Source: Bacteroidales bacterium (GTDB lineage: Bacteria; Bacteroidota; Bacteroidia; Bacteroidales; F082). Taken from it: a stretch of DNA of 32,049 nucleotides. Of this stretch, positions 1 through 22,945 are shown piece after piece. A program made the translations under genes and the position numbers. Under the pieces are notes generated by a model. That model saw nothing but the letters and a program-made list of their open reading frames with translations. It was not told the origin of the DNA and searched no databases. Where the stretch lies: contig JAILBC010000010.1 of assembly GCA_024681295.1 (NCBI GenBank), forward strand, positions 1-32,049, read 5' to 3'. Within the stretch, counting starts at the first letter, position 1; each line of letters starts with the position of its first letter.

Positions 1-12
1 GCTCCTTTCTTT

Positions 13-1932
13 TTAAATGGTGATGACAACAGACCCATTTAACAATGTTACAACACGTTTGTCGTTGCCGCCCTTGATTTTCAACACGGGCTTCATCCGT
101 TTTGTTAGCAGGACCGGTGGGTTGGACTCGTCGTCAACGACGTAGTAGGTGGATTCCTTGATCACTCCGTCAACGCACTTGTACGCCTTGCTTTGGTCTT
201 TCAGGATGTCCATCACGACACCAGTTTGATAAACCGCATTGTACTGGGCTTTGAGTGTCGCCCTGTCCGTTCCCGAGTAGAAGGCGCCGAAGCCCGGATG
301 TGAATGAATCCAGCAGACAGGAAACACTTTGTGCGCTTCACAGTAATCGGAAATCCGGATGCCGTCGCTCAGCGAAATTTCGCAGGTCACCTGCGTTGAC
401 CCTCCTGAAGCAGGAATGAAATGGGTGCCAACAGTGAATTGACGATTTGGGTTGGCAGGATCCGAACAATAATACCCGACGATGACTCCTGTGGCTTCAT
501 GACCCCGTTGTTCGTAAACGCCAAGGGCATACTCCTTGAAAGCATCCAAGGCACTCTTGTTAAGGTAGCAGGTGCATTCATCGTCTTTGGACAGGGGATG
601 GAATTCGGGATTGGCAAAGACCTCCTTCACTTTCGCAAGGGTCTTCACATCTTCTTCAGCGTCCTCACAGCCTCTGTAGTAGTCGGCCGGGCTGTCTTTC
701 AGGCTGAAAGGCTCCACCTTGCGTGGCCCGCTGATTTTGCATTTCGGTTCGCTTTCATCAAGCCTCACATGATAAGTCTCAAAATCACCGTTCACACTCA
801 CTGTAGCTTCCAATACATCATTCTTGGGGATTCCGATGTCGCGCAGTTTACTTCTCAAGATCTCGGGTGCGGAAGCGTTCGACACCTCCTGAAGGGTGAC
901 CCACTCGTCATTGTGATAAAGGTGACTCTGATAGTCCTCCTCTTTTCTGCACTCCTCGCACCAGCGCTCATGGTTCCAGATTTTCGACTTGCGCCTGTTA
1001 TAGGTAATCAGTTTCCCGCAATTGTTGCAGTGGCCGGTGAAGACGAATGTGTCGGGAAGTTTGATCACGGCAGCGTGGCCTAAGGCCTTCTCCACCGCTT
1101 TCAACAACTGGCCAACGGTGGGATTAACTACGGTCTTCACGGTGGTGATAGGCATGAAAGCCTCTTGACGGATCTTCAAATTGGGATTGGGCGTGATGAT
1201 CATGTCGAAAGTCTCGTTGTTCAGACCGAAGAAAAACAAGGTCTTGCCGACGATGGTGGATCTTCCCTCCAGGTAAAGGACAAGTTCCTTTGCCACGATG
1301 GCTCCAGCGATGGCGGCGGTGCATTCGATGGTCGGAATGACCTTTAACTCAGTGTCCTGGATTTTCAATCCGGAACAGCTGTTGCGCTTGCCTTCGAAGT
1401 CGCCTTCGCCAATCTGGTCTCTCAGGCACACTGGGTAGGTCTTGTTCTCGAAATCAGGAGCGAAGAAGCTGACATTCACCTGAAAGTCGGTCATGCCAAC
1501 CTCAATGAACGGCTTGCCAGCCCTGACGCACCCGTCGTTGATATAGGGGCGACAGTTTCTGGTATCGACAGCGCCGATGAAGATGTCGCAATCCCAAAAG
1601 ACACCCTTCCCAACATCTTCCATGAAATTGCCGTTGACGAACTCCACATCTGGATGGTCGTGGAGGATGTTCTGTCGGGCATACTCCGCCGCCACTTGAG
1701 CCTTGGGCTTCCCGACATCCTTTTTCTTGAAACATTGCGATTTCGACAGGTTCGACTCTTCTACATGGTCGAAATCCACTAGGAAGAACCGTCGGAATCC
1801 CATACGAATCAGGATTCCCAGGATGGCATTGCCAATGGAACCGAGACCGATGATGGCGATACGAATTCTTCTGATAATCTCACCTGTGCCAGGTTTTAGC
1901 ACAAGGTCTTGACGGCTGTGGTAATTAGTCAT
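13..1932 (-). CDS. E1-like (ThiF fold) / zinc ribbon / JAB-JAMM protease fusion of a ubiquitin-like system
   Basis: A 639-residue three-part protein. Residues 24-220 form an E1/ThiF adenylation domain: the nucleotide loop GLGSIG is at 29-34, the acidic strand end VDFD at 52-55, then NLSKSQ at 61-66 and a conserved Lys near 75. Cys186 and Cys204 are the candidates for the thioester cysteine; I cannot choose between them. Residues 302-328 hold a CNNC...CEEC zinc ribbon (Cys302, 305, 325, 328). Residues 455-590 are a JAB/JAMM metalloprotease with Glu479, His543-Ser-His545-Pro, Ser553 and Asp556, the full zinc and catalytic set. By family knowledge the E1 part adenylates the C-terminus of a ubiquitin-like modifier and passes it to the E2, and the JAB part trims the precursor or removes the modifier. 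It is the last gene of the operon visible here. An AAGGAG-like stretch follows its stop, so another gene may lie beyond position 1. No signal peptide is seen, so it should be cytoplasmic. Confidence 0.9.
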   Translation of the reverse strand: MTNYHSRQDLVLKPGTGEIIRRIRIAIIGLGSIGNAILGILIRMGFRRFFLVDFDHVEESNLSKSQCFKKKDVGKPKAQVAAEYARQNILHDHPDVEFVNGNFMEDVGKGVFWDCDIFIGAVDTRNCRPYINDGCVRAGKPFIEVGMTDFQVNVSFFAPDFENKTYPVCLRDQIGEGDFEGKRNSCSGLKIQDTELKVIPTIECTAAIAGAIVAKELVLYLEGRSTIVGKTLFFFGLNNETFDMIITPNPNLKIRQEAFMPITTVKTVVNPTVGQLLKAVEKALGHAAVIKLPDTFVFTGHCNNCGKLITYNRRKSKIWNHERWCEECRKEEDYQSHLYHNDEWVTLQEVSNASAPEILRSKLRDIGIPKNDVLEATVSVNGDFETYHVRLDESEPKCKISGPRKVEPFSLKDSPADYYRGCEDAEEDVKTLAKVKEVFANPEFHPLSKDDECTCYLNKSALDAFKEYALGVYEQRGHEATGVIVGYYCSDPANPNRQFTVGTHFIPASGGSTQVTCEISLSDGIRISDYCEAHKVFPVCWIHSHPGFGAFYSGTDRATLKAQYNAVYQTGVVMDILKDQSKAYKCVDGVIKESTYYVVDDESNPPVLLTKRMKPVLKIKGGNDKRVVTLLNGSVVITI

Positions 1933-1952
1933 GATCTTGATTTTTGGTTGGT

Positions 1953-2585
1953 TTATAACGGTTTGATGGTAAATGTTTTCTTTTTCGGTGCCGACACCGG
2001 CTTGATGGTGATGTGGGTGTCACGGAGGTTGAAAGGCCAGCGGATGTCGTTGGTGGGCTGCCTGTGGCGCTTCTTGACATAGAAGTCCCAGGCCTCGGCG
2101 TTGAGATGGCCGCCATTGGAAGCCTGCCACGAAGGATCGAGGTTCAGCAAGGCGCCCACGGCAATCACGAAATACCACAGGCCATAGCCTTGCATGGCCA
2201 CTTGCCAAGCGTTGCCCGTGCAGATAAAGCCAGCATTGACGTGCTTGTTATAGGGCACTGAATCGGGTGGGAAGCTGCCGCCGTCAATGATCACGCCGGT
2301 ACTGCCATTGCCCAGTAGGGATTCTTCGGAAACTTCGAAGACGATGGTTCCTTCCCAATCCTTTTTCAGCTTGCCGCCCGTGACATACATGGGCATCTTG
2401 TAACGGACCTTGTATCTGACAGGATAGTACTCCATCGTGTTCTCCTGCAGGATTGGGATCCAATTGCCTGCTCCCTGGCGCGGCTGGTACCAGATGGTGA
2501 CGATGTCTTTTACATTGGAATTGCGTTGTAGTTTCTGCAGGAGTCTGAACTCCTCTCTTAATCTGATTTCATAAATTTTACTCAT
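1953..2585 (-). CDS. E2-like ubiquitin-conjugating-fold protein
   Basis: A 210-residue protein that I assign to the E2 fold. The N-terminus is a basic amphipathic helix (residues 3-22, EIRLREEFRLLQKLQ), as in E2 helix 1. The core carries a proline-containing stretch at 105-111 and then HVNAGFICTGNAW (115-127). This places His115 and Asn117 before Cys122, matching the HPN...C active site of E2 enzymes with a shorter loop. The following residues are hydrophobic and helical. A further helix, HLNAEAWDFYVKK (160-172), resembles the E2 C-terminal helix region. The last 25 residues hold two similar short strands (ITIKP and FTIKP) of unknown role. It would accept the modifier from the E1 on Cys122 and pass it to a target. 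It sits 20 bases before the E1-JAB gene and 11 bases after the OB-like gene, in one transcription unit. Overall similarity to classical E2s is low, so the call rests on the motif and the neighbours. Confidence 0.77.
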   Translation of the reverse strand: MSKIYEIRLREEFRLLQKLQRNSNVKDIVTIWYQPRQGAGNWIPILQENTMEYYPVRYKVRYKMPMYVTGGKLKKDWEGTIVFEVSEESLLGNGSTGVIIDGGSFPPDSVPYNKHVNAGFICTGNAWQVAMQGYGLWYFVIAVGALLNLDPSWQASNGGHLNAEAWDFYVKKRHRQPTNDIRWPFNLRDTHITIKPVSAPKKKTFTIKPL

Positions 2586-2596
2586 GGCTATATGGT

Positions 2597-2965
2597 TTAC
2601 TGTTTCGTGATTCTAAAGATGATTCCGTTGTGGTCACCAAATCGGAAGTGCTGCTTAACAACACCTTCCACTTTGACTTCTTCCCCATCGGCGGGCGAGA
2701 GGACCTTTCCGAAGACATGGATGCTGCCCGTATGATCGGTCAGCAGAAACCAGCTGTATCCGAAGAGTCCGGTCGATTCGCTCACCTCCCCCTTGATGCA
2801 GATGGTCTTGCCATCATACACCTGGGGGGACGAAAGGATGTGCCCGATGGGCACTGTGCGGTCTAGCCGTGTGTGAACACCGGGTTCCTGGCGACTGCAG
2901 GTAGCCATCGGTAACACTATGGCTACTACGATGGCTACTATGATGATAACGAGCAGCTTTTTCAT
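2597..2965 (-). CDS. small membrane-anchored OB-fold-like protein
   Basis: A 122-residue protein. Residues 4-19 are a strongly hydrophobic segment followed by MATC (Cys23). This is either an imperfect lipobox or a plain N-terminal membrane anchor. The remainder (about 38-122) alternates beta strands of the kind YDGKTICIKGEV, YSWFLLTDHTGSIHVFG, GEEVKVEGVV and HNGIIFRIT, which looks like a small OB barrel of the tRNA_anti-like type. The start lies 4 bases after the stop of the tandem-Ubl gene and the end lies 11 bases before the E2 gene, so it is a core member of the operon. A membrane-side OB protein is not a usual partner of ubiquitin-like conjugation, and I cannot say whether it binds nucleic acid, sugar or protein. 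The fold call is inference from strand pattern; the gene itself is clear from spacing and coding character. Confidence 0.65.
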   Translation of the reverse strand: MKKLLVIIIVAIVVAIVLPMATCSRQEPGVHTRLDRTVPIGHILSSPQVYDGKTICIKGEVSESTGLFGYSWFLLTDHTGSIHVFGKVLSPADGEEVKVEGVVKQHFRFGDHNGIIFRITKQ

Positions 2966-2969
2966 GGCA

Positions 2970-4070
2970 TTAATGGGTTACGTTTACGATGGGCTCGGGA
3001 ACACTGAGCTTGTCGTTCAGGAACGAAACGAATTCTTCGATCAGCTTGAGCTGGAACTCCACGGTCAGGTCGAGCTGACGTGACAAAGATTCCTCATACT
3101 TTTTCTTGAAAGAGGGAACGGTCATGGACTGGCAGCTCTTGTAAGTCTGCTCAAGGTGCTTGATTTCGCGGTCCTGGATTTCAATGAGATTGTTCTGCAC
3201 CTCCTCCAACTTGGCCCTGGCAAAACGGACCACGTCGCCTCGGAGTTGACCCTTGTAAACGCTGAGGGCGGCATTGAAACGTTCTGTGAGCGCCTGGAGC
3301 TGGGCGTTATGGGAAAGTTTGCAGAGACGGAGGTAGAAATCCGACGATTCCTTTACCGAGTCCTTTTTGAAGTCATTGACGATGCGCTGCTGCGCACTGG
3401 GGAAGAAACGTGAGATCAGCGAAGACTTGGCCATCAACAGGCGCGTGGTGTTCAAATCCGTGATGCCCGCATCGCGGATGAGACGCTCCGTCTGGATGGT
3501 CTCGGGGGTTTTGCCCCCCGAGACCATTAGGCCGCTGTCGCCGGCCGCCGCCTCGCCTTTTGCCACGAGGCGGATGGTGTCACCGTCCTTGAAGCCCAAC
3601 TCCTCCAACGTCTTGTTCATGTCGGTGTCGGGAACCGCGACGTGCGTCTGGTTGCTGACCACAAACCAAGTCATGCCCGGTTTGGTTTCCAGAAACCCGC
3701 AGTTGATAGCCTCTTCGACGAGGTCGTGGGCGGTGACGGTGGCAAAGTCGAGATCCTCGACGTCACGCCGTTCCATGTTGGAACTCTCAAGAAGCGAGGC
3801 GCCAGCCGCCGCCTCGCCTTTTGCCACAAGGCGGATGGTGTCGCCGTCTTTGAAGCCCAACTCCTTCAACGTCTTGTTCATGTCGGCGTCGGAAACCGCC
3901 ACGTGCGTCTGGTTGCTAACCACATACCAAGTCATGCCCGGTGTGGCCTCAAGAAACCCGCAGTTGATACCCTCTTCGACGAGGTCGTGGCCTTTAGTGT
4001 TGGTAGGATCGATATTATTTACATCTCTTTGTTCCATGCTGGAGCTTTTGATCATTTTGAGGTTTGCCAT
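2970..4070 (-). CDS. tandem ubiquitin-like (beta-grasp) polyprotein with helical C-terminal domain
   Basis: A 366-residue protein with two tandem units at about residues 9-90 and 96-177, period 87 residues. Over residues 12-90 against 99-177 I count 62 identities in 79. Each unit has a central helix with HDLVEE.INCGFLE, a strand (MTW[YF]VVSNQTHVAV), a short helix (DMNKTL.ELGF) and the terminal strand KDGDTIRLVAKG. This order matches a ubiquitin-like beta-grasp domain, and the end resembles the DG(D)T.RL...G end of many bacterial Ubls. After unit 2 comes LMVSGGKTPE (181-190), with Gly185-Gly186 as a possible processing point, then a 175-residue helical region rich in Leu, Lys and Glu (about 190-366). 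Position upstream of E2 and E1-JAB makes this the likely modifier precursor. The helical part may be a carrier, anchor or leader removed by the JAB domain; that is inference. No signal peptide is seen. Confidence 0.78.
   Translation of the reverse strand: MANLKMIKSSSMEQRDVNNIDPTNTKGHDLVEEGINCGFLEATPGMTWYVVSNQTHVAVSDADMNKTLKELGFKDGDTIRLVAKGEAAAGASLLESSNMERRDVEDLDFATVTAHDLVEEAINCGFLETKPGMTWFVVSNQTHVAVPDTDMNKTLEELGFKDGDTIRLVAKGEAAAGDSGLMVSGGKTPETIQTERLIRDAGITDLNTTRLLMAKSSLISRFFPSAQQRIVNDFKKDSVKESSDFYLRLCKLSHNAQLQALTERFNAALSVYKGQLRGDVVRFARAKLEEVQNNLIEIQDREIKHLEQTYKSCQSMTVPSFKKKYEESLSRQLDLTVEFQLKLIEEFVSFLNDKLSVPEPIVNVTH
3496..3527. repeat. 13-bp perfect inverted repeat inside the polyprotein gene
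   Basis: The left arm is 3496-3508 and the right arm 3515-3527; the arms are perfectly complementary, with a 6-base loop (TTTTGC on the plus strand). Nine of the 13 pairs are G-C. It lies in frame in the Ubl gene and encodes M-V-S-G-G-K-T-P-E-T-I, exactly the boundary between Ubl unit 2 and the helical domain. There is no following T-run in the sense direction, so it is not an ordinary intrinsic terminator. Confidence 0.9.
3540..3785 (-). repeat. tandem Ubl repeat, unit 2
   Basis: Encodes residues 96-177 of the tandem-Ubl polyprotein. It aligns without gaps to unit 1 at an offset of 261 bases. The 3' two thirds of the two units are nearly identical in DNA, while the 5' third (encoding the first strands) has diverged. 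This pattern suggests a fairly recent duplication or ongoing gene conversion of the helix-to-last-strand part. Confidence 0.85.
3801..4046 (-). repeat. tandem Ubl repeat, unit 1
   Basis: Encodes residues 9-90 of the tandem-Ubl polyprotein and is the partner of unit 2. Both units end in the same KGEAAAG segment, which could be a spacer or part of a cleavage site between modifiers. Confidence 0.85.
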
Positions 4071-4074
4071 AGTT

Positions 4075-4173
4075 TTAGATTTTTGATTGTTGTGTTTTTT
4101 GGTTGATTTGGTTCTTACGCTTCCAATCTATTATTTTGGCCGTTGCGGATGTAAGAAGCCTGTTGCCTTTCAT
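4075..4173 (-). CDS. possible 32-residue leader or small protein between the exported protein and the Ubl gene
   Basis: An ATG reading frame of 32 codons plus stop on the minus strand, filling most of the 137-base gap between the 475-residue exported protein and the Ubl polyprotein. It is preceded by a perfect AGGAGGTGA (plus-strand positions 4192-4200) at a long spacing of 18 bases. The peptide is basic, rich in Lys, Gln and Asn, and has no recognisable domain. Its stop lies 4 bases before the Ubl start codon, so translational coupling is possible. Strong Shine-Dalgarno sequences are rare in Bacteroidota, which is why I list it, but it may equally be non-coding. Confidence 0.22.
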   Translation of the reverse strand: MKGNRLLTSATAKIIDWKRKNQINQKTQQSKI

Positions 4174-4207
4174 TTTTTCGACTTTATGCTTTCACCTCCT
4201 TTTTTCA

Positions 4208-5635
4208 TTATGGTTTGTTTTTGGGTTCCGTTATATAACCATTGGGACCGTTTCCCCCGAAACCCCGAAAACAACATGATTTGGTCTTTTTCAACAAGGT
4301 CTCGAATCGCCCCTTGTCAACATTGTATTGCAAGGCAATGAAGAGTCGGATCTCATCGTCGCGGTATGGGTTCTTGTCCTTGGTTCCGTAGCAGACGTGG
4401 CCGTGACGGATAATGAAGCTGTTGGGCTCATACTCGATGGCGAAGCCAGGCGAAAATGGACCTACAAGACGTTCGTACTCAAGATCGCGTTCGTAGGAAC
4501 CGTTATGAAGGTAATCCAACAAATGGTCGATGTGATGGTTAAAGTCTTGTTTCGCATTGGTGGTCATGTCGTTCAACAAGGCTGTTACAGTAGGCGACAT
4601 CCAGTTGACGAGGGCTTTGAAGATCTTGGGGTTGTCGAGGATTTCTCCCCTGACATACCGTATGACGTAGTCATTTTCCAAATAAAAGTCAAAATTGTTT
4701 CCGATCACGTTTCCTAGTTCAAGGCCTTCGACAAACCGATCCCACTCATCGGTATGATTGTCGACCAATGCTTTCAGTTCAGCAGTCCAAACCAAGGCAA
4801 TATCGGTGAGCCACAGGGTGTCCCTTTCCAAATCGAAGTAGGTGTCGGCTATCAACTTTGGCGGTGGTGTAAGTTCACACTGGGTAATGATAGGATGCTC
4901 GTAGGTAAGAAACACGGGAGGATACACATCAAGCCACTGGCGAATGGTTTCGGCGGAAATGTCAAAGTCTTCAACCAGTTCCAGCACAAAGGTTTCCCAA
5001 TGCCGGTATGGGTTGACGATGGAATCCCCGTCGAGGTAGAGCATTCCTGACTCTTCGAAAATCAGGCCTTTACTGTTGAACCAGTCTTGGATTCCATGTT
5101 CCTTGCAGTATGCGTAGAAGAAAGCGTCGTGACGAAGTTCATCGGTATCGAGATAGGTCTTGAGGTGCTCGGTGATAAGATAGAGTACGGCATCGGAGCC
5201 TTGGGTGGCCGGTCCATAATATTTGATGGATTGACATACCCACTCAAAGAAGTCGTTACGGAGTTGAGGGTCGGCGATAAGGTCACTGATGAAGTCATCG
5301 GTTTTCTGAAGGGAAGTGGCGAGGGGTGGTTCCATGACTGCGACATAGTGTCGTTCGAATTCAGAGATGTCGTCACCCCAAGCCAGGTTCAAGGGACGGA
5401 TGGAATAATGGAGTTTTTTGATCTGCTGGTTGAAACTATGCAGAAAGAATCGGTGCGGGTCGTTTTTGACGAGGAAGGCCTGCACATTGTCAGGAGCTAC
5501 GAGGAGATGGTCGTAGTAGTTCCAGTTGATTGAAGGTTTGTCGTTCTTTTGGTCAGCTGCCTTCGCGCCGCTTGCGGCTAGGAGGATTAAAGCTACAAAG
5601 AGTACTACCGAAGCTAGATTTTTCAAATTTTTCAT
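4208..5635 (-). CDS. exported protein of unknown family (475 residues)
   Basis: I do not recognise this protein. It begins with a clear signal peptide (MKNLKN, hydrophobic core VVLFVALILLAAS, signal peptidase I site AKA-AD near residue 27), so it should be periplasmic or surface-exposed. The mature part is about 450 residues, acidic and mostly helical, with many aromatic residues (for example NWNYYDHLL, NDFFEWVCQSIKYYG, DAFFYAYCKEHG). The C-terminus is different: a short TKSCCFRGFGGNGPNGY segment with two adjacent cysteines and many glycines. It lies 11 bases after the LRR gene and upstream of the Ubl gene on the same strand, so it is probably co-transcribed with the conjugation genes. Why an exported protein is in this unit is unexplained; it could be a target, a sensor or a cell-surface effector. 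The coding call is firm, the function unknown. Confidence 0.85.
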   Translation of the reverse strand: MKNLKNLASVVLFVALILLAASGAKAADQKNDKPSINWNYYDHLLVAPDNVQAFLVKNDPHRFFLHSFNQQIKKLHYSIRPLNLAWGDDISEFERHYVAVMEPPLATSLQKTDDFISDLIADPQLRNDFFEWVCQSIKYYGPATQGSDAVLYLITEHLKTYLDTDELRHDAFFYAYCKEHGIQDWFNSKGLIFEESGMLYLDGDSIVNPYRHWETFVLELVEDFDISAETIRQWLDVYPPVFLTYEHPIITQCELTPPPKLIADTYFDLERDTLWLTDIALVWTAELKALVDNHTDEWDRFVEGLELGNVIGNNFDFYLENDYVIRYVRGEILDNPKIFKALVNWMSPTVTALLNDMTTNAKQDFNHHIDHLLDYLHNGSYERDLEYERLVGPFSPGFAIEYEPNSFIIRHGHVCYGTKDKNPYRDDEIRLFIALQYNVDKGRFETLLKKTKSCCFRGFGGNGPNGYITEPKNKP

Positions 5636-5646
5636 TTTGTTTATTT

Positions 5647-6744
5647 TTATTGGTTAGATTTGTTGTTCTTCTTTTCAATAATCGTTACGCCCTCAGGGAC
5701 ACTTGCGTTTACCAGCAGTGATGCGTCGCTGATGATGATTTCTTCTAAATTACCGCAGCCACAAAAAGCATGTTTGCCGATTTTTTCTACTGAATCCGGT
5801 ATAGTGATGCGCTTTAGTCCCGTACATTCAGAAAAAGCTTCTGTACCGATGGCCTTAACCGTGTTGGGAATCACCGTTGTGGCGCAGCCATTGATTAGGA
5901 TATTATTTGGAGTATCGATGATGGCGTTACAGTTATTTCTGGAATCAAAGAATTTGTTTTCTTTTGATACCTCAATGGAAACAAGATTTTCGCATCCACT
6001 AAGCACAGAGCCCTCAATGGTCCACAGATTCTCGGGAATGAAGACAGACTTTAGGGGGGTGTCAGACAAGGCATGTTTTTCGAGGACTTTCAGCGTGGGG
6101 GGAAGACTGATGGTTTCCATGTCCCAACAGTTGTCAAAGGCCCAACTTCCAATCTCGGTGACGGGGATGCCTTTTACTTCGCTAGGAATGACCAGATGCT
6201 TGATATCATCCATTTCATCCATATGACAGAGTTTCAATCCTTTTTTGTTGTTTGTTACATTGAACTCCATAACTCGACCGTCAAGATTTGAGGTGATGCG
6301 GATATCGGGTTCCAACCGTAGGTCCTCTACTTGGAATGATTCTGTCGCTATTTCCACGCCTTCGGGAATATCCACATCTTTCAGCAACGCTGGGTTCTGG
6401 ATGACAATCTGTTTAAGGATTTTGAGATCGCCGTACGTTATGAACGCCGAGGGATCGATGTTGGTAACCGTATTTGGAATGATCAGTATTTCAACTCCCA
6501 AGCCAATATTACCACCTATGGAATTGAGGGTGTATTCTGTTCCCTTGTATTCAACAGCTGATGGCAATTCGGCTTTTATCTTTCCATTATCACAACAAAA
6601 ACCTATTTGGGCTAAATCTTCGATTTTTTCCAAGCGTAGGGTTTTTGTGTCTTCATTAACATCGAAAACAGCGTAAAGTCTGCCTTCGTTATAAATAACT
6701 TGCAATTGATTGGTGAAATGACCGTTTTGTTCGTTAAGTTTCAT
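5647..6744 (-). CDS. BspA-type leucine-rich-repeat protein (LRR_5), no signal peptide
   Basis: A 365-residue protein with about six LRR_5 units from residue 75 to the end. Typical pieces are GSWAFDNCWDMETISLPPTL, GTEAFSECTGLKRITIPDSV and GKHAFCGCGNLEEIIIS, the hallmark of the BspA/Treponema LRR family (A-F-x-x-C-x-x-L-x-x-I-x-[IL]-P-x-x-[VL]). The first 70 residues are a separate beta-rich segment. Most BspA relatives are secreted, yet this one starts MKLNEQNGHF with no signal peptide or C-terminal sorting domain, so it is predicted to stay in the cytoplasm. It is the first gene of the operon that carries the Ubl, E2 and E1-JAB genes. LRR domains bind proteins and often give target choice in eukaryotic ligases, so a target-binding role is a tempting idea, but nothing in the sequence shows it directly. 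Confidence 0.88.
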   Translation of the reverse strand: MKLNEQNGHFTNQLQVIYNEGRLYAVFDVNEDTKTLRLEKIEDLAQIGFCCDNGKIKAELPSAVEYKGTEYTLNSIGGNIGLGVEILIIPNTVTNIDPSAFITYGDLKILKQIVIQNPALLKDVDIPEGVEIATESFQVEDLRLEPDIRITSNLDGRVMEFNVTNNKKGLKLCHMDEMDDIKHLVIPSEVKGIPVTEIGSWAFDNCWDMETISLPPTLKVLEKHALSDTPLKSVFIPENLWTIEGSVLSGCENLVSIEVSKENKFFDSRNNCNAIIDTPNNILINGCATTVIPNTVKAIGTEAFSECTGLKRITIPDSVEKIGKHAFCGCGNLEEIIISDASLLVNASVPEGVTIIEKKNNKSNQ

Positions 6745-6852
6745 AGTGGTAATTTTTTAGGTTGTTTGTTTAATTGAAAAAAGTTTTCTTGCTATATATC
6801 CGTTTTCCAGAAAAATTGCCCCGAATTATCCCACTAGCAAAAAGCCTAAAAC
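6745..6852 (-). promoter_or_regulatory. leader and probable promoter region of the Ubl operon
   Basis: A 108-base A/T-rich gap between the start of the LRR gene and the recJ terminator. It must hold the promoter of the minus-strand operon if the terminator at 6853-6890 isolates it from recJ. I see no perfect TAnnTTTG box on the minus strand; TATATAGC around 6790-6800 is only a partial match. No operator-like repeat was found. Confidence 0.35.
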
Positions 6853-6890
6853 AAAAACAGGGTTCATATGGCCATATGAACCCTGTTTTT
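6853..6890. terminator. bidirectional intrinsic terminator after recJ
   Basis: A perfect palindrome with 19-base arms (6853-6871 and 6872-6890). The stem is flanked by AAAAA on the left and TTTTT on the right, so it can form a hairpin followed by a U-run in either direction. It starts 27 bases after the recJ stop on the minus strand and separates recJ from the Ubl operon. Confidence 0.9.
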
Positions 6891-6917
6891 TAAAGCTTAT
6901 CCGAAGATTGGAAAAGC

Positions 6918-8699
6918 CTAAATGTTTTCCTTGAACTTGATGTCCTTGACGTTGAGCTGGAGGGTGGTCTTGCCCTGCCAGTAGTTGTATTCCAGGTTGT
7001 AGCAGATGCTGAAAGGTTCGCCGCTGTGGATGCGCGAGAAGAGGTCGCCTTTCTGGAAGGCGATGCCCGAGAAGACGTTGCGTTCGTCGTCGCCAAGCTG
7101 GCGCACGGTGAGTTTCAGGTGCTTGTGGCCGCCCACGGGACGTGAGCCTCCGGCATCGATGATGTTGTCGGACCAGAACACCGGAGCGCTGTTGCCCGGA
7201 CCGAAGGGAGCGAACTGGTTGAGGATGCGCATGAACTTGGCGGTGATGTCGCGGAAGTTGATCTTGAGGTCGACTTCCAGTTCAGGTACCAGTTCCTCGA
7301 CGCTAAGGTGTTCGCGGATGTAGGCCTCGAAACGGCGGCGGAACTCGTCGACGTTCTCCGGTTTCATGGAGAGGCCGGCGGCGTATTTATGACCACCGAA
7401 GTGCTCCAGCAAGTCGGAGCAATGGTCTATGGCGTCGTAGATGTCGAAGTTCTTGATGGAGCGCGCTGAGCCAGTGATGAGGTCGTTAGCGCGAGTAAGC
7501 ACAATGGTAGGCCTGTAGTAGTAGTCGGTGAGGCGCGAGGCCACGATGCCGATGACGCCCTTGTGCCAGTTCTCGTTGAAGATGACGGTGCTTCGGGCGT
7601 TGCGCAGTTCCTCGTCATCGGCAATCATATTGAGGGCCTCTTCGGTGATGCCGTTGTCGAGCTCACGACGGGTGTCGTTGAGTTCGTTGATGTTGGCTGC
7701 GAGTTTGAGGGCGTGCTCGTGTTTCTCGGCCAGGAGGAGGCGCACTGAGTCGGAGGCCTTGTCGATACGGCCTGCGGCGTTGATGCGGGGACCGATGAGG
7801 AACACCAGGTCGCTGATGGTGAGTTCGCGGGTCAAGGCATTGGCGCTTTCGCCGTCAACGCGTTCAGGATCTTCTTCGCGGCGGTAGATGTTAGCATGTT
7901 GGAGGATGGCTTCGATGCCTGGGCGCGGCTTTTTGTTGAGTTGTTTCAGTCCGTAGTAGGCCAACACACGGTTCTCACCGGTGATGGGCACGATGTCGGC
8001 GGCAATGCTGACGGCCAGCAGGTCGAGCAGCTCGTAGACACCTTCGATGGGGAGCCCTTTACGGATAGAGAGGGCGGTGATGAGTTTGAAGCCCACGCCG
8101 CAGCCTGAGAGTTCCTTGTAGGGATAGGTGCAGTCGGGGCGTTTCGGGTCGAGCACGGCCACAGCGGCAGGAATCTCATCACCGGCGCGGTGATGGTCGC
8201 AGATGATGAAGTCGACGCCTTTCTCGTTGGCGTACTGGATACGTTCCACCGCCTTGATACCGCAGTCGAGGGCGATGACGAGCTTGAAGTCGTTCTCAGC
8301 AGCATAGTCGATGCCCTTGAAGGAGATGCCGTAGCCCTCATCGTAACGGTCGGGGATGTAGAACTCGATCTTTTTCTTCTTGAAGAACTTCTTCAGATAG
8401 GTATAGACCAGAGCGACAGCCGTAGTGCCGTCCACGTCGTAGTCTCCGTAAATCAGTATTTTCTCGCCGTTGTCGATGGCTTGCACCACGCGGTCCACGG
8501 CGCGGTCCATGTCCTTCATCAGGAAGGGGTCATGCAGTTGGGAGAGCGCTGGGCGGAAGAAAACTTTGGCCTCGTCGTAAGTGGTAATTTCGCGTTGAAC
8601 GAGCAAAGTAGCCAGGTGCTCGTCGATGTTGAGCGCCTTGGCAATCTCTGTAACCTGCTGGTTATCAACGGCTTTATTTAAAATCCACCTTGTCTCCAC
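6918..8699 (-). CDS. recJ: single-stranded-DNA-specific exonuclease RecJ
   Basis: A 593-residue protein, the usual size for RecJ. The DHH-family phosphoesterase motifs are intact: motif I GDYDVDGTTA (85-94), motif III CDHHRAGDEIP with Asp168-His169-His170, and the DHHA1 part with GGHKYAAGLS, followed by the OB domain (about 455-593). RecJ degrades single-stranded DNA 5' to 3' in recombination repair and in processing of stalled forks; it is cytoplasmic. The start is GTG; no in-frame ATG exists before the conserved N-terminal region (METRWILNKA). It is transcribed away from purH and ends just before a strong terminator, so it is probably a single-gene unit. Confidence 0.96.
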   Translation of the reverse strand: METRWILNKAVDNQQVTEIAKALNIDEHLATLLVQREITTYDEAKVFFRPALSQLHDPFLMKDMDRAVDRVVQAIDNGEKILIYGDYDVDGTTAVALVYTYLKKFFKKKKIEFYIPDRYDEGYGISFKGIDYAAENDFKLVIALDCGIKAVERIQYANEKGVDFIICDHHRAGDEIPAAVAVLDPKRPDCTYPYKELSGCGVGFKLITALSIRKGLPIEGVYELLDLLAVSIAADIVPITGENRVLAYYGLKQLNKKPRPGIEAILQHANIYRREEDPERVDGESANALTRELTISDLVFLIGPRINAAGRIDKASDSVRLLLAEKHEHALKLAANINELNDTRRELDNGITEEALNMIADDEELRNARSTVIFNENWHKGVIGIVASRLTDYYYRPTIVLTRANDLITGSARSIKNFDIYDAIDHCSDLLEHFGGHKYAAGLSMKPENVDEFRRRFEAYIREHLSVEELVPELEVDLKINFRDITAKFMRILNQFAPFGPGNSAPVFWSDNIIDAGGSRPVGGHKHLKLTVRQLGDDERNVFSGIAFQKGDLFSRIHSGEPFSICYNLEYNYWQGKTTLQLNVKDIKFKENI

Positions 8700-8844
8700 G
8701 ATACTAATTTTGAATCTGTAAAAATAAGAATTTTTTCAATAAATTGTAAAAGAAATAAAAAAAATATTTTTTTAGGTGTCGGGGTTGCGTAGTGTTTCTA
8801 TTTTTAATAAAATTGCAATACGAATTTTTCCTAATTTTATTCCT
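8700..8844 (+). promoter_or_regulatory. divergent intergenic region recJ/purH with a TAnnTTTG box
   Basis: A very A/T-rich 145-base gap between divergent genes. On the plus strand TAATTTTG at 8705-8712 is a perfect match to the Bacteroidota -7 box TAnnTTTG. A -33 TTTG at the right distance is not present. If used, it gives a purH leader of roughly 125 bases. No matching box for recJ was found on the minus strand. Confidence 0.4.
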
Positions 8845-10323
8845 TTGAAAAAAATTGCAACTGCTTTAATATCAGTATTTTATAAAGATGGAATTGATAC
8901 TGTTGTCGAGCTGCTGAAGGCGCAGGGCGTGCAGATTTATTCCACCGGGGGGACGTACGACTACATCCACAAGCTTGACCCTACGGTGAAGACGGTGGAG
9001 TCGCTGACGACCTATCCTTCCATTTTGGGTGGCCGTGTGAAGACCTTGCATCCCAAGGTATTTGGCGGCATCCTGGGAAGGACCCAACTGGAGTCAGACC
9101 GCGCCGAGATGGCCCAGTACGGCATCCCTGCGTTCGATCTGGTGGTGGTGGACCTGTATCCCTTTGAGGAGACCGTGGCCAGCACCGACGACCAGAGCGC
9201 TATCATCGAGAAGATTGACATCGGCGGCATTTCGTTGATTCGCGCCGGAGCAAAGAACTTCAACGAGGTGCTCATCGTTCCTTCTAGGGAGCATTATGGT
9301 GAGTTGATCCACCTGCTGGAGACACAAAACGGAGAGACTTCGTTGGAAGACCGCAAACGTTTTGCGGGCTATGCTTTCGCGGTGAGTTCGCATTACGACA
9401 CGGCCATCTCTCGTTGGTTCTGTCCCGACACCGAGCTTCGTTATGGCGAGAATCCCCATCAGAAGGGCTATTTCCGTGGCAACCTGGATGCCTTGTTCGA
9501 GAAGCTGCATGGCAAAGAACTTTCGTACAACAACCTTCTCGACCTTGAAGCTGGACTCTCGCTCATCAGGGAGTTTGACGACCCGACCTTTGCCATCCTC
9601 AAGCACAACAACCCCTGCGGCATCGCCAGCAGACCCACGGTGAAGGAAGCCTATCTGGCCGCTTTGGCCGGTGACCCCGTGTCGGCCTTTGGCGGCGTGT
9701 TGGTGTGCAACCGACCCGTCGATATGGCGGCGGCCGAGGAAATCAACAAGCTCTTTGTGGAAGTCATCGTGGCCCCTGGCTATGAGCCTGGCGTGCTCGA
9801 CCTGCTGTTCTCGAAGAAGAACCGCATCATCCTGCGGCTAAAGGAAGACCTTTACGACCGCGTGATGGTGAAGAGCGTGCTGAACGGCTATCTGGTGGAG
9901 GACCGCGACCTGCATACGGAGACGCCCGACGACTTCAAGGTAGTCACCGAAAAGGCACCGACAGCTGCTGAAATCGACGACATGGTATTTGCCAACAAGG
10001 TGGTCAAGCACAGCCGTTCCAATGCTATCACCTTAGCGAAAAATGGACAGTTGTGCGCTTCCGGCATCGGTCAGACCTCGCGTGTCGATGCGTTGCGCCA
10101 AGCCATCGAGAAGGCCCATTCCTTCGGCTTCGACCTCCACGGTGCCGTGTTGGCTTCCGATGCTTTCTTCCCCTTCGACGACTGCGTGAAGTTGGCCCAC
10201 GAAGCTGGCATCACCGCCATCGTGCAACCCGGCGGCTCCGTCCGTGATCAAGACTCCATCGAAAGATGCAACGAATTTAACATAAGTATGGTATTTACTG
10301 GATATCGTCACTTTAAACATTAA
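8845..10323 (+). CDS. purH: bifunctional AICAR transformylase / IMP cyclohydrolase
   Basis: PurH carries out the last two steps of purine synthesis: formyl transfer to AICAR and ring closure to IMP. From the start chosen here it has 492 residues, near the family size. The N-terminal IMP cyclohydrolase domain shows STGGTYDYI, YPSILGGRVKTLHPK and GGISLIRAGAKN. The C-terminal transformylase domain shows KHNNPCG (Lys253-His254, the catalytic pair) and KHSRSNAI. I chose TTG at 8845 because the protein then begins KKIATALISVFYKDG, as in relatives. The open frame extends upstream to a GTG at 8776, but the extra 23 residues (MSGLRSVSIFNKIAIRIF...) do not look like PurH. The first gene of the plus-strand run; mreB follows after 18 bases. 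Confidence 0.95.
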   Translation: MKKIATALISVFYKDGIDTVVELLKAQGVQIYSTGGTYDYIHKLDPTVKTVESLTTYPSILGGRVKTLHPKVFGGILGRTQLESDRAEMAQYGIPAFDLVVVDLYPFEETVASTDDQSAIIEKIDIGGISLIRAGAKNFNEVLIVPSREHYGELIHLLETQNGETSLEDRKRFAGYAFAVSSHYDTAISRWFCPDTELRYGENPHQKGYFRGNLDALFEKLHGKELSYNNLLDLEAGLSLIREFDDPTFAILKHNNPCGIASRPTVKEAYLAALAGDPVSAFGGVLVCNRPVDMAAAEEINKLFVEVIVAPGYEPGVLDLLFSKKNRIILRLKEDLYDRVMVKSVLNGYLVEDRDLHTETPDDFKVVTEKAPTAAEIDDMVFANKVVKHSRSNAITLAKNGQLCASGIGQTSRVDALRQAIEKAHSFGFDLHGAVLASDAFFPFDDCVKLAHEAGITAIVQPGGSVRDQDSIERCNEFNISMVFTGYRHFKH

Positions 10324-10341
10324 CTTCTAAATTCTAAAAAA

Positions 10342-11364
10342 ATGGGAGCTTTTTCATTCCTGAATAAAGAGATCGCTATTGACCTGGGTACGGCCAATAC
10401 GATCATCATATACAACGACAAGGTTGTCGTTGACGAGCCTTCCATTGTGGCCTTGCAGCGCGACACGAAGAAGATCATCGCAGTGGGCAAGCGCGCCATG
10501 ATGATGCACGGCAAGACCCACGAGAACATCAAGACCATCCGTCCCTTGCGCGACGGTGTGATTGCCGACTTCCAGGCGGCCGAGTACATGATGCGCGAGA
10601 TGATCAAGATGATTCAATTCAAGAACACCCTGTTTCCGCCCAGCCTGAAGATGGTAATCTGCATCCCTTCAGGCATCACCGAAGTGGAGGAGCGTGCCGT
10701 GAAGGACTCGGCTGAGCAGGCTGGCGCCAAAGAGGTGCGTCTGATCCACGAGCCCATGGCCGCAGCCATCGGTATCGGCATCGACGTGCTTGAGCCCACG
10801 GGTAACATGATCATCGACATCGGCGGTGGTACCTCCGAAATCGCCGTCATCGCCTTGGGTGGCATCGTCAACAACAAGTCCATCCGTATCGCTGGCGACG
10901 ACTTCAACGCCGATATCGAAGAGTACATGCGCAAGCAGCACAACATCATCGTGGGCGAGCGTTCCGCCGAACGCATCAAGATCGAGGTCGGTGCCGCCAT
11001 CCCACAGCTCGACAACCCGCCACAAGACTTTGCCGTGCAGGGTCGTGACATGCTCAGCGGCATCCCGAAGGAGATCAAGGTGAACTACTCCGAGATCGCC
11101 CACTGCCTTGACAAGAGCATCATGAAGATCGAGACCGCCGTGCTCAACGCCTTGGAGCAGACGCCTCCTGAGTTGGCTGCCGATATCTTCCGCACGGGTA
11201 TCTACCTCACTGGCGGTGGTGCCTTGCTGCGTGGCCTCGACAAACGTCTGGCCGCCAAGACCAAGCTGCCCATCCATGTGGCCGAGGACCCGTTGCGTGC
11301 TGTGGCCCGCGGCACCGGTATTGCACTGAAGAACTTCGACCGCTTCACCTTCCTCATCAAGTAA
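10342..11364 (+). CDS. mreB: rod-shape-determining actin-like protein MreB
   Basis: A 340-residue actin homologue that forms membrane-bound filaments and directs lateral cell-wall synthesis. The ATP-binding motifs are intact: phosphate-1 IDLGTANTIIIYNDK near residue 13, phosphate-2 MIIDIGGGTSEIAVIALGG near 155, and the adenosine motif GIYLTGGGALLRGLD near 285. Length is normal for the family. The start follows an A-rich tract. It lies between purH (18 bases) and mreC (3 bases), the standard Bacteroidota order, so it is probably expressed from the purH promoter or one inside purH. Confidence 0.97.
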   Translation: MGAFSFLNKEIAIDLGTANTIIIYNDKVVVDEPSIVALQRDTKKIIAVGKRAMMMHGKTHENIKTIRPLRDGVIADFQAAEYMMREMIKMIQFKNTLFPPSLKMVICIPSGITEVEERAVKDSAEQAGAKEVRLIHEPMAAAIGIGIDVLEPTGNMIIDIGGGTSEIAVIALGGIVNNKSIRIAGDDFNADIEEYMRKQHNIIVGERSAERIKIEVGAAIPQLDNPPQDFAVQGRDMLSGIPKEIKVNYSEIAHCLDKSIMKIETAVLNALEQTPPELAADIFRTGIYLTGGGALLRGLDKRLAAKTKLPIHVAEDPLRAVARGTGIALKNFDRFTFLIK

Positions 11365-11367
11365 GGA

Positions 11368-12192
11368 ATGTACAACCTTCTGCGTTTCATACAGAAACAC
11401 CACTTCGTGATCCTCTTCCTGGTCCTCGAGGTGCTGTGTGTTGTGATGCTGACGATGACCCAAAGCTACCATCGCCAGAAGCGGATCAACACCACCAACG
11501 ACATTGTGGGGAGGATCTACCAGACCGGCACGCGTGTGGGCGATTATTTCCGCCTGGGCAAAATCAACAGCGAGCTGGCCGAGGAGAACGCCATGCTGCG
11601 TCGTCAGCTGGCCGTGGTGACCGACACGACGCAGGGGTACCAACAGGTCGTAAATGCCGACACTATCTACAACTTCATCCCTGCCAGGGTGGTTAACAGC
11701 ACCGTCAACCGGCCCAACAACTACATCATGATCGACAAAGGCCGCGAGGACGGCATCGAGAAGGACATGGGCGTGATTTCTCCTGAGGGCATCGTGGGCA
11801 TCGTCACCGACGTGAGTTCCCATTACGCCTCGGTGATGAGCCTGCTGCACAGTTATTCCATCACCAGCGTGCGCCTGAAGAACAACGACGATCAGCTGGT
11901 CACGTTGCGTTGGGAGAACACCAACTACCGTTACGGCACCGTCGACGGCATCCCCACCCATCTGCGACCGCAGAAAGGCGACACCGTGGTCACCAGCTCC
12001 TACTCTTTCATCTTCCCCGAGAACCTCATGGCCGGCACCATCGAGGAACTCATCCCCTCCCCTTCCGGCACCCTCAACACGGCCAAGATCAGGTATGCCA
12101 CCGACTTCGCCTCGTTGAAGACTGTGTACGTCATCCAACACACCAACAAAGCCGAGCTCGACTCGCTATACCAACACCAGCAGCATCAATGA
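11368..12192 (+). CDS. mreC: rod-shape-determining protein MreC
   Basis: A 274-residue membrane protein with one N-terminal membrane segment (residues 11-30, HFVILFLVLEVLCVVMLTM), a short coiled-coil stretch (about 60-80) and the periplasmic beta domain with NRPNNYIMIDKGREDGIEKDMGVISPEGIVG and SDVSSHYASVMSLLH-type sequence typical of MreC. It links MreB filaments to the periplasmic wall-synthesis machinery. The stop overlaps the mreD start (ATGA), so the two are translationally coupled. The last 20 residues are Gln/His-rich and not conserved. Confidence 0.95.
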   Translation: MYNLLRFIQKHHFVILFLVLEVLCVVMLTMTQSYHRQKRINTTNDIVGRIYQTGTRVGDYFRLGKINSELAEENAMLRRQLAVVTDTTQGYQQVVNADTIYNFIPARVVNSTVNRPNNYIMIDKGREDGIEKDMGVISPEGIVGIVTDVSSHYASVMSLLHSYSITSVRLKNNDDQLVTLRWENTNYRYGTVDGIPTHLRPQKGDTVVTSSYSFIFPENLMAGTIEELIPSPSGTLNTAKIRYATDFASLKTVYVIQHTNKAELDSLYQHQQHQ

Positions 12193-12710
12193 ACAGAACC
12201 CTGATAAACATATTGCGATTTGTGCTTTTGGTAGTGGCCCAGGTATTGTTGGTGAACCACATCCGCCTCGGCGGCTATGTGCATCCATACATCTATCTCA
12301 TCTTCGTGATGCTGCTTCCGCTCAACATGCCCGGTTGGCAACAGTTGTTATTAGGATTCGGCATTGGATTGGTCATCGACCTGTTCATGGGCACCTTGGG
12401 CATGCATGCCGGCGCCACCACAATGATGGCCTTCTGCCGACCCGGCATCATCCGGCTCGTGTCGGGAAGCCAGAAGTTCGACAATATCCGCGAACCTAAC
12501 ATGGTCCAACTTGACTTCCCTTGGTTCCTACGTTATACCCTCTGCATGGTCTTCGTGCACAACTTCACCTACTTCATGCTCGAGGGCTTCAGCTTCCACC
12601 TCGTTGGTCAGGCGCTGCTGCGTATTGTGGTCAGCGTGCCGGTGTCGACGTTCCTCATCCTCATGATAATTATGTTGTTCTCTCCCACGAAGAATAAAGT
12701 GAAGAGTTAA
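12189..12710 (+). CDS. mreD: rod-shape-determining protein MreD
   Basis: A 173-residue protein with about five membrane segments (for example INILRFVLLVVAQVLLV, YIYLIFVMLLPLNM, LLLGFGIGLVIDLFMGTLGMHA, and two near the C-terminus). LLLGFGIGLVIDLFMGTLGMHAGA is the conserved MreD region. The start ATG at 12189 overlaps the mreC stop; a longer reading frame in the same phase begins inside mreC, but that part shows no membrane protein features. The last codons and stop fall inside a short direct repeat (12696-12729). In many Bacteroidota mrdA and rodA follow; here radA follows after about 20 bases. Confidence 0.92.
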   Translation: MNRTLINILRFVLLVVAQVLLVNHIRLGGYVHPYIYLIFVMLLPLNMPGWQQLLLGFGIGLVIDLFMGTLGMHAGATTMMAFCRPGIIRLVSGSQKFDNIREPNMVQLDFPWFLRYTLCMVFVHNFTYFMLEGFSFHLVGQALLRIVVSVPVSTFLILMIIMLFSPTKNKVKS

Positions 12711-12729
12711 AAGTTAAAAGTGAAGAGTT
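12696..12729 (+). repeat. 13-bp direct repeat spanning the mreD stop and radA leader
   Basis: AAAGTGAAGAGTT occurs at 12696-12708 and again at 12717-12729, period 21, separated by TTAAAAG-like units. The first copy encodes the last residues of MreD (KVKS) and the second ends three bases before the radA ATG. Similar short purine-rich repeats are common at gene borders in Bacteroidales; I recognise the type but do not know a named family. Confidence 0.75.
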
Positions 12730-12731
12730 CC

Positions 12732-14099
12732 ATGGCTACCAAAGAAAAGAGCATATTTTTCTGCAAGTCGTGCGGCAATGAGTCGCCGAAGTTTTTTGGG
12801 AGATGCCCTGCCTGCGGGGAGTGGAATACGTGTGTGGAAGAGAAAGTAGTGGAAAGTGGAAAACGGAAAGTGGAAAACTCTCCACTTTCCACTCTCAACT
12901 CTCCACTTCCCATTCGGGAGATCACCAATGCTGAAGAACAGCGGATTGTATTGCCTTTTGAGGAGCTGAATCGTGTGTTGGGGGGAGGATTGGTATTGGG
13001 ATCGTTGGTTTTAGTTGGCGGTGAGCCTGGAATTGGTAAATCTACACTATTATTGCAAACTGCTTTACAATTAGACGGTAAGAAGGTGTTGTATATCTCT
13101 GGTGAGGAGAGTCAGACCCAGATCAAGATGCGTGCCGATCGTATTGGGATTCGCAACGAGAACTGCTTGATTTTGACCGAGACCGACACCAAAGAGATCG
13201 TGAAGCATTTCAAGGACGTGCAGCCCGATATCGTTATTGTCGACTCCATACAAACTTTGAGTTCGCCATACGTCGACGCCACGGCGGGAAGCATCACCCA
13301 GATCCGTGAGACGGCGGCCGAGATGAACAAGCTCGCCAAGTCGTATCAGGTGCCCGTGTTTCTCATCGGTCACATCACCAAAGACGGCAGCATCGCCGGA
13401 CCCAAGATCTTAGAGCATATCGTCGACACCGTATTGCAGTTCGAGGGCGACCGGCACTATGGTTTCCGCATTTTGCGCACCATCAAGAACCGTTTTGGTT
13501 CCGCTTCGGAGTTGGGCATCTTCGAGATGAATGCTACGGGCTTGCGTGAGGTGACCAACCCCAGTGAGTTTTTGCTCTCGCAGCGCGACGAGGAGGTGAG
13601 CGGCATCGCCATCGCCGCCACCATGGAGGGCCAGCGCCCCATGCTCATCGAGACCCAAGCCTTGGTGAGCACCGCAGCCTATGGAACGCCGCAGCGTTCC
13701 AGCACCGGTTTCGACACCCGAAGGATGAACATGTTGCTGGCGGTCTTGGAGAAGCGCGCCGGCTTTAGGCTCAACATGAAAGATGTGTTTTTGAACATCG
13801 CTGGAGGCATCCGCAGTGATGATCCCGCCTTGGATTTATCGGTGGTAACTGCTGTGCTCTCGTCGAATGCCGACATCCCCATTGACAACCGTTATTGTTT
13901 TGCCGCTGAAGTGGGTCTGTCAGGAGAAATCAGGGCAGTCACCCGCATCGAGTCACGCATTGCCGAGGCCGACAAGCTTGGTTTCGAGAAGATTTTCATT
14001 TCCAAATACAACGCCAAGGGTTTGAACACCCAACGTTTTCATATTGAGGTAGTTCCAGTGGCCACGGTGTACGACTTGGCTACCGAACTGTTTGGATAA
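12732..14099 (+). CDS. radA: DNA repair protein RadA (Sms)
   Basis: A 455-residue RecA-like protein that promotes branch migration in recombination intermediates. It has an N-terminal zinc finger CKSC...CPAC (Cys11, 14, 25, 28), Walker A GGEPGIGKST (97-106), the RadA motif KNRFGS with SASELGIFEM after it, and a C-terminal Lon-like domain (DVFLNIAGGIRSDDPALDL). I start at ATG 12732 because it gives MATKEKSIFFCKSCG; a GTG 12 bases upstream lies within the direct repeat. Residues 39-60 are an insert made of repeat DNA (see 12846-12911), longer than the usual linker between finger and ATPase core. It probably belongs to the purH-mreBCD transcript or has a weak promoter in the repeat-rich gap. Confidence 0.96.
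   Translation: MATKEKSIFFCKSCGNESPKFFGRCPACGEWNTCVEEKVVESGKRKVENSPLSTLNSPLPIREITNAEEQRIVLPFEELNRVLGGGLVLGSLVLVGGEPGIGKSTLLLQTALQLDGKKVLYISGEESQTQIKMRADRIGIRNENCLILTETDTKEIVKHFKDVQPDIVIVDSIQTLSSPYVDATAGSITQIRETAAEMNKLAKSYQVPVFLIGHITKDGSIAGPKILEHIVDTVLQFEGDRHYGFRILRTIKNRFGSASELGIFEMNATGLREVTNPSEFLLSQRDEEVSGIAIAATMEGQRPMLIETQALVSTAAYGTPQRSSTGFDTRRMNMLLAVLEKRAGFRLNMKDVFLNIAGGIRSDDPALDLSVVTAVLSSNADIPIDNRYCFAAEVGLSGEIRAVTRIESRIAEADKLGFEKIFISKYNAKGLNTQRFHIEVVPVATVYDLATELFG
12846..12911 (+). repeat. repeat-derived palindromic insert within radA
   Basis: A 14-base tandem unit GGAAAGTGGAAAAC lies at 12851-12864 and 12865-12878. TCCACTTTCCAC (12881-12892) is the perfect complement of GTGGAAAGTGGA (12849-12860), and a further partial copy follows at 12901-12910. 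The block stays in frame and encodes VVESGKRKVENSPLSTLNSP, residues 39-58 of RadA. The same peptide style (NSxLSTLNSxL) is known to me from repeat insertions in other Bacteroidales proteins. Confidence 0.85.
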
Positions 14100-22930: not shown

Positions 22931-22945
22931 ACAACAACTGGAAAT

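What the first reader, a model, noticed from the sequence alone, without database searches (positions are those of the whole stretch)
1..6744. Ubiquitin-like conjugation operon with LRR and envelope partners
Seen: six minus-strand genes with gaps of 11, 137, 4, 11 and 20 bases encode an LRR protein, an exported protein, a tandem Ubl, an OB-like membrane protein, an E2-like protein (His115-x-Asn117...Cys122) and an E1-zinc ribbon-JAB fusion. Known: bacterial Ubl systems (Bil, Bub, CBASS Cap2/Cap3) combine Ubl, E2, E1 and JAB parts in antiviral operons. Inferred: this is a complete write-and-erase system, but its first two genes and the OB-like gene differ from the described sets and point to the cell envelope or to an added target-recognition part. 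It may be an undescribed subtype.
Basis: partly seen in the sequence, partly recalled or inferred. Interest (0 to 1): 0.9.

Follow-up and report, generated by a model that had tools for sequence, protein, structure and literature searches.

The report
Rare bacterial ubiquitin-like tagging operon
A Bacteroidales genome carries a compact and very rare set of genes that looks able to attach and remove a ubiquitin-like protein tag, and the set seems to run on into a neighbouring contig with a peptidase related to the ubiquitin-activated DA1 enzyme of plants.

Summary
The six minus-strand genes are there with exactly the stated gaps. Four form the core: an E1 fused to a zinc ribbon and an intact JAMM domain; an E2 without a database family that models as an E2 fold, with His115 and Cys122 invariant in 10 of 10 sequences; a tandem ubiquitin-like protein (four relatives have a single domain, so a recent duplication); and a small OB-like protein. 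Contig C104 overlaps the window's left end by 141 exact bases and adds a 75-residue Cys-rich protein sharing the E2's FTIKP tail, a DA1-like LIM-peptidase and a DUF4407 membrane protein. The last two also lie together in two other genomes of the order, beside kinase/PP2C genes rather than ubiquitin-like genes. The LRR and 475-residue genes are not shown to belong: the only large gap sets them apart, and the 475-residue protein loses homology at that junction. The layout fits none of the described types I could test, but key recent papers were not readable. Best reading: a new variant of the bacterial ubiquitin-like conjugation systems, with reversible tagging possibly controlling a peptidase/membrane module. 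The coupling and any defence role are inferred.

The parts
13..1932 (-). E1-zinc ribbon-JAB protein, 639 aa: ThiF/E1 domain 18-245, candidate E1 cysteine C169 (by recalled motif), ribbon C302/C305/C325/C328, JAMM residues E479, H543, H545, S553, D556
1953..2585 (-). free E2-like protein, 210 aa, His115 and Cys122 invariant in 10 of 10 sequences, C-terminal FTIKPL tail
2597..2965 (-). small protein with N-terminal hydrophobic stretch and possible lipobox, OB-like by sub-cut-off matches only
2970..4070 (-). tandem ubiquitin-like protein, 366 aa: two beta-grasp domains (about 2-83 and 90-172), linker with Ser184-Gly185-Gly186, helical C-terminal domain
4208..5635 (-). 475-aa protein with signal-peptide-like N-terminus; membership in the system not shown
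5647..6744 (-). BspA-type LRR protein without an evident signal peptide; membership in the system not shown
1..141 (-). exact 141-base overlap with the start of contig C104 (locus L009), which carries on: 75-aa Cys-rich protein L009:147-374, DA1-like peptidase L009:371-1057, DUF4407 protein L009:1092-2162, receiver-domain protein L009:about 2456-4546 (open at the contig end)

Best explanation
A rare Ubl conjugation and deconjugation system of Bacteroidales with a new layout. Proposed cycle: the JAMM domain cuts the Ubl precursor after the conserved Ser-Gly-Gly, releasing the helical tail. The E1 domain adenylates the new glycine end and passes the tandem Ubl by way of its own cysteine to Cys122 of the free E2. 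The E2, perhaps with the 75-aa Cys-rich protein that carries the same FTIKP tail and could be an adaptor or E3-like factor, tags a target; the JAMM domain can also take the tag off. The downstream DA1-like peptidase and DUF4407 membrane protein are the likely output or sensing module, controlled by the tag. Shown by computation: genes, motifs, predicted folds, rarity, the overlap with C104, and the company of DA1-like and DUF4407 genes in three loci. Inferred: the processing site, the transfer steps, the role of the shared tail, the coupling to the peptidase, and the trigger and target. I put about 0.75 on reversible conjugation and about 0.35 on the coupling to the DA1-like/DUF4407 module.
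For: E1 and JAB domains over cut-off with intact motifs. E2 fold and invariant His115/Cys122. Beta-grasp folds of the Ubl domains. SGG invariant in 5 of 5 sequences of A4, while none of the five C-termini ends in Gly. Ubl and E2 relatives share contig lengths 10439 and 31738. Tight gaps of 4, 11 and 20 bases among the four core genes. Exact 141-base overlap with C104, found in these two contigs only, then gaps of 17 and 34 bases and a 4-base overlap on the same strand. FTIKP motif only in the E2 and the 75-aa protein among 21 proteins checked. DA1-like gene near a DUF4407 gene in 3 of 3 loci.
Against: No biochemistry. The two other DA1-like/DUF4407 loci have kinase, PP2C and VWA genes and no Ubl genes in the stretches read, so the link to Ubl conjugation is seen once. 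The home DA1-like protein is just under the Pfam cut-off (24.0 against 25 bits). The Ubl model is weak as a whole (pTM 0.38) and its SGG linker is disordered. With the distant P0020 included, only G185 of SGG stays invariant. The contig join is not read-supported.
Confidence: 0.6

Rival explanations
1. One reading: an anti-phage system of the Bil/CBASS sort, in which the LRR and 475-aa proteins are real parts that recognise the target or act at the envelope.
For: Bacterial Ubl systems are tied to phage defence in print (PMC12687455, passages). The locus is accessory: 8 of 8 relatives read lack it beyond recJ. The 475-aa protein is as rare as the E2. No minus-strand terminator-like site in the 137-base gap.
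Against: 137-base gap, loss of homology of the 475-aa protein at the junction, no shared contig length with E2 or Ubl relatives (weak). LRR-like genes also lie beyond recJ in 3 of 8 relatives without the system. PADLOC matches only the E1 domain, partially.
Confidence: 0.2
2. The Ubl protein is never cut or conjugated; the E1/E2-like proteins act in another transfer reaction, such as sulfur carriage or non-covalent assembly.
For: No free C-terminal glycine in five of five Ubl proteins. YukD-type Ubls are not conjugated (PMC1779556, passages).
Against: Invariant SGG in the linker, intact JAMM site beside the E1, E2 with invariant Cys122.
Confidence: 0.15
3. C104 does not follow the window in the real genome: the overlap is a branch point, and the 75-aa, DA1-like and DUF4407 genes belong to another strain or place.
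For: Contigs end where an assembly graph branches (general knowledge); the assembly is in 174 contigs with 4.67% contamination.
Against: Exact 141-base overlap shared by just these two contigs; the overlap contains the end of the E1-JAB gene itself, and the next gene starts 17 bases later on the same strand; shared FTIKP tail.
Confidence: 0.1

Closest known systems
Type 6E polyubiquitin operons (Iyer 2006), which I take from recall to be the group now called Bub
   Same: One to three Ubl repeats, an E2-like part, E1 and JAB on one chain, an extra small Zn protein
   Different: In 6E JAB is mostly N-terminal to E1 and the E2-like domain lacks the cysteine; here JAB is C-terminal after a zinc ribbon and the E2 cysteine is invariant
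Type 6A operons (E2-E1-JAB triple protein plus metallo-beta-lactamase)
   Same: JAB at the C-terminus of the E1; E2 with conserved His and Cys
   Different: Here the E2 is a separate gene, there is a tandem Ubl gene, and no metallo-beta-lactamase match among the genes scanned
Bil (BilABCD; recalled as Iyer type 6D)
   Same: Tandem Ubl, separate E2, E1 and JAB activities in one operon
   Different: Bil has a separate JAB gene and an E2 with a CEHH pattern (passages); here JAB is fused to E1 and the pattern is absent by reading the sequence
Plant DA1 family (ubiquitin-activated peptidases)
   Same: LIM-like Cys pairs followed by an HExxH peptidase; two relatives pass the Pfam DA1-like cut-off; bacterial relatives are noted in print (passages of PMC5322733, citing Burroughs 2011)
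   Different: Bacterial and shorter; activation by a Ubl is untested

Membership tests
E2 (UBC) superfamily | UBC fold | tested here: met
E2 (UBC) superfamily | Active-site cysteine with upstream histidine | tested here: met
   His115 and Cys122 invariant in 10 of 10; Asn117 in 2 of 10
Type 6E polyubiquitin operon | One to three Ubl repeats | tested here: met
   Two beta-grasp domains; definition
Type 6E polyubiquitin operon | JAB (in most cases) at the N-terminus of the E1 module | tested here: not met
   E1 at 18-245, JAB at 477-571
Type 6E polyubiquitin operon | E2-like domain without catalytic cysteine | tested here: not met
   Cys122 in 10 of 10
Type 6A operon | E2, E1 and JAB on one chain in that order | tested here: not met
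   E1-JAB order is the same, but the E2 is a separate gene
Type 6A operon | Metallo-beta-lactamase gene | tested here: inconclusive
   No such match among the 6 window and 4 C104 proteins; C104 is cut off
Bil | JAB as a gene of its own | tested here: not met
   JAB fused to E1; definition
Bil | CEHH pattern in the E2 (Cys, then Glu at +6, His at +8 and +13) | tested here: not met
   Window E2 has Gln, Ala and Gly at those offsets from Cys122, read from the sequence; pattern
CBASS with Cap2 | E2-E1 fusion beside a cGAS-like nucleotidyltransferase | tested here: not met
   E2 is free; no nucleotidyltransferase match among the 6 window and 4 C104 proteins
DA1 family (PF12315) | Match over the Pfam cut-off | tested here: inconclusive
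   Home protein 24.0 bits against 25; two relatives 48.6 and 35.2
DA1 family (PF12315) | LIM-like Cys pairs and HExxH | tested here: met
   C9, C12, H34, C39, C42, C53, C56, H147, E148, H151 invariant in 3 of 3
DA1 family (PF12315) | Activation by ubiquitin or Ubl | not testable with these tools
   Known for plant DA1 (passages)

The most novel reading that the evidence does not exclude
A bacterial operon in which conjugation of a tandem ubiquitin-like protein switches on a DA1-like LIM-peptidase at the membrane: a bacterial counterpart, perhaps a forerunner, of the ubiquitin-activated peptidases of plants, with E2 and adaptor docking through a shared FTIKP tail.
Probability: 0.25. Interest if true: 0.87.

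Novelty: new variant of a known kind. Interest (0 to 1): 0.64.

Why it matters
Bacterial Ubl systems are models for how ubiquitin signalling arose. This one has a free, active-looking E2, a tandem Ubl that looks freshly duplicated from a single one, and a JAMM domain on the same chain as the E1. If the C104 link holds, it also stands in one operon with a relative of DA1, a peptidase that ubiquitin activates in plants. That would make an origin of ubiquitin-controlled proteolysis in bacteria testable with a handful of small genes.

Tried and rejected
Rejected: that the set is complete within the window; that His-x-Asn is a family motif; filing under 6A, 6E, Bil or CBASS as described (membership test). 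Left open: the LRR and 475-aa genes as parts.

Led nowhere: genome-contig scans with the E1-JAB sequence and the E2 alignment; viral-contig scans with the E2, DA1-like and Ubl alignments; tblastn with the E2 in plasmids and phages and with the DA1-like and Ubl proteins in plasmids: no relative. These contig scans rest on two or six short exact patterns each, and records of the home genome may be left out. PDB sequence searches with the E2, the Ubl, and the DA1-like and E2 profiles gave nothing usable. A weak JAB match in G444 led to a different Ubl system; its E1 resembles the window's (24.6% over 395 residues), its E2 and Ubl do not by sequence. The far end of C104 matched only itself. Promoter and terminator scans found no more sites than shuffles.

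Caveat on contig lengths: one search does not list the window's own 475-aa protein, and some clusters have more members than contigs, so the lack of a shared contig for that protein is weak evidence; the shared lengths for Ubl and E2 are positive evidence. Also, Ubl cluster P0019 lies on a 90,963-base contig that no E2 row names as its longest.

Print: the nine answered paper searches listed no paper that, by title and abstract start, joins a DA1-like peptidase to a bacterial Ubl conjugation operon. The papers most likely to bear on it (Chambers 2024, Gong 2025, Ye 2025/2026, Burroughs 2011) are not held, so this is weak.

Full report
What is in the window. The contig ends 12 bases after the stop of the last one, the E1-JAB gene, so the list could not be known to be complete.

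The operon goes on. Searching genomes with the C-terminal 400 residues of E1-JAB found its last 42 residues again at the start of contig C104 of the home genome. The overlap is exactly 141 bases and only these two contigs carry it; that length is a common largest k-mer of an assembler (recalled). C104 continues on the same strand: 17 bases, then a 75-aa Cys-rich protein; a 4-base overlap; a 228-aa protein with LIM-like Cys pairs and an HECGH site; 34 bases; a DUF4407 membrane protein (5e-37); a gap of some 290 bases or more; and a receiver-domain protein (9.2e-11) open at the contig end. The 75-aa protein ends in FTIKP...FKIKPL and the E2 in FTIKPL; the other 19 of 21 proteins checked (10,299 residues in all) lack the motif. 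Seven of ten E2 family members end in FTIK or FSIK tails, and three have FSFG-like tails. A shared docking tail is the simplest reading, and it supports the join.

The DA1-like module. The home protein scores 24.0 bits against the Pfam DA1-like cut-off of 25; the two other matches, among 393 genomes of the order (3 of 393 with the home genome), score 48.6 and 35.2. In all three loci a DUF4407 gene is next door or one gene away. In the other two the neighbours are PP2C and kinase genes, in one also VWA genes, and the window's E1, E2 and Ubl found no match there. So the pair is a portable module, and its company with Ubl genes is seen once. Plant DA1 is a latent peptidase activated by ubiquitylation, and its LIM-like part has bacterial relatives (passages of PMC5322733). 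Ubl control of the bacterial peptidase is therefore an attractive, unproven idea.

The LRR and 475-aa genes. They are set apart by the only large gap, though no terminator-like site was found in it on the minus strand. The 475-aa protein matches two relatives at 87% identity up to about residue 453, where those proteins end, and runs on for 22 unrelated residues, as at a recombination junction. Relatives of Ubl and E2 share contig lengths 10,439 and 31,738; none links the 475-aa protein to either, a weak point because the window's own copy is missing. In its favour, the 475-aa protein is as rare as the E2: a strong match only in the home genome among 99 of the genus and 393 of the order, with one marginal match (4.7e-4, a stop inside) in G033. 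In 8 relatives read for 6-12 kb beyond recJ, none of the core, C104 or 475-aa proteins was found; LRR-like genes were found in 3 of 8 (gene lists made for 5 of the 8). The site is variable, and the LRR gene may be ordinary local content.

Rarity. The E2 was found in 1 of 100 relatives, 1 of 393 of the order and 1 of 99 of the genus, each time the home genome, and in no GTDB 220 species contig, viral contig, plasmid or phage record, within the limits of those searches.

Comparison. The section of Iyer 2006 on types 6a-6e was read in full and passages on Bil in a review (PMC11354881). JAB at the C-terminus of E1 is like 6A, but here the E2 is free. Ubl repeats are like 6E, but there JAB is mostly N-terminal and the E2 is inactive. 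A free E2 is like Bil, but here JAB is fused and the CEHH pattern is absent. I call it a new variant of the bacterial Ubl conjugation systems and not a member of a named type. The main recent papers on Bil and Bub were not readable here, so a described match cannot be excluded.

Mechanism and function. Reversible conjugation is likely (about 0.75); a link to the DA1-like/DUF4407 module is plausible (about 0.35). Defence against phages is possible and untested; Bub operons too have not been shown to protect against phage (passage of PMC13373217).

Noticed in passing
L010 (G444:C19:236000-254000), 627-12967: Another Ubl system in the same order: a 109-aa protein ending in Ala-Gly beside an E2-like gene (UQ_con 1.7e-5, under cut-off), a JAB-like membrane protein, a RING-like membrane protein (under cut-off) and an E1, next to T6SS-like genes (TssK 7e-8 and gp25, both under cut-off).
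   Followed up: partly
L047 and L048: DA1-like and DUF4407 genes lie together in operons with PP2C and protein kinase genes (L048 also VWA domains and, by reading, M48-like peptidase and dynamin-like genes).
   Followed up: partly
window 16853-24456: A 2025-aa Rhs/YD-repeat-like ORF is followed by a 255-aa ORF (23689-24456) that repeats its core end and carries another C-terminus, like a displaced Rhs cassette (read).
   Followed up: no
L009:2456-4546: A receiver-domain protein (Response_reg 9.2e-11) after a longer gap, cut by the contig end; it may or may not belong to the system.
   Followed up: no
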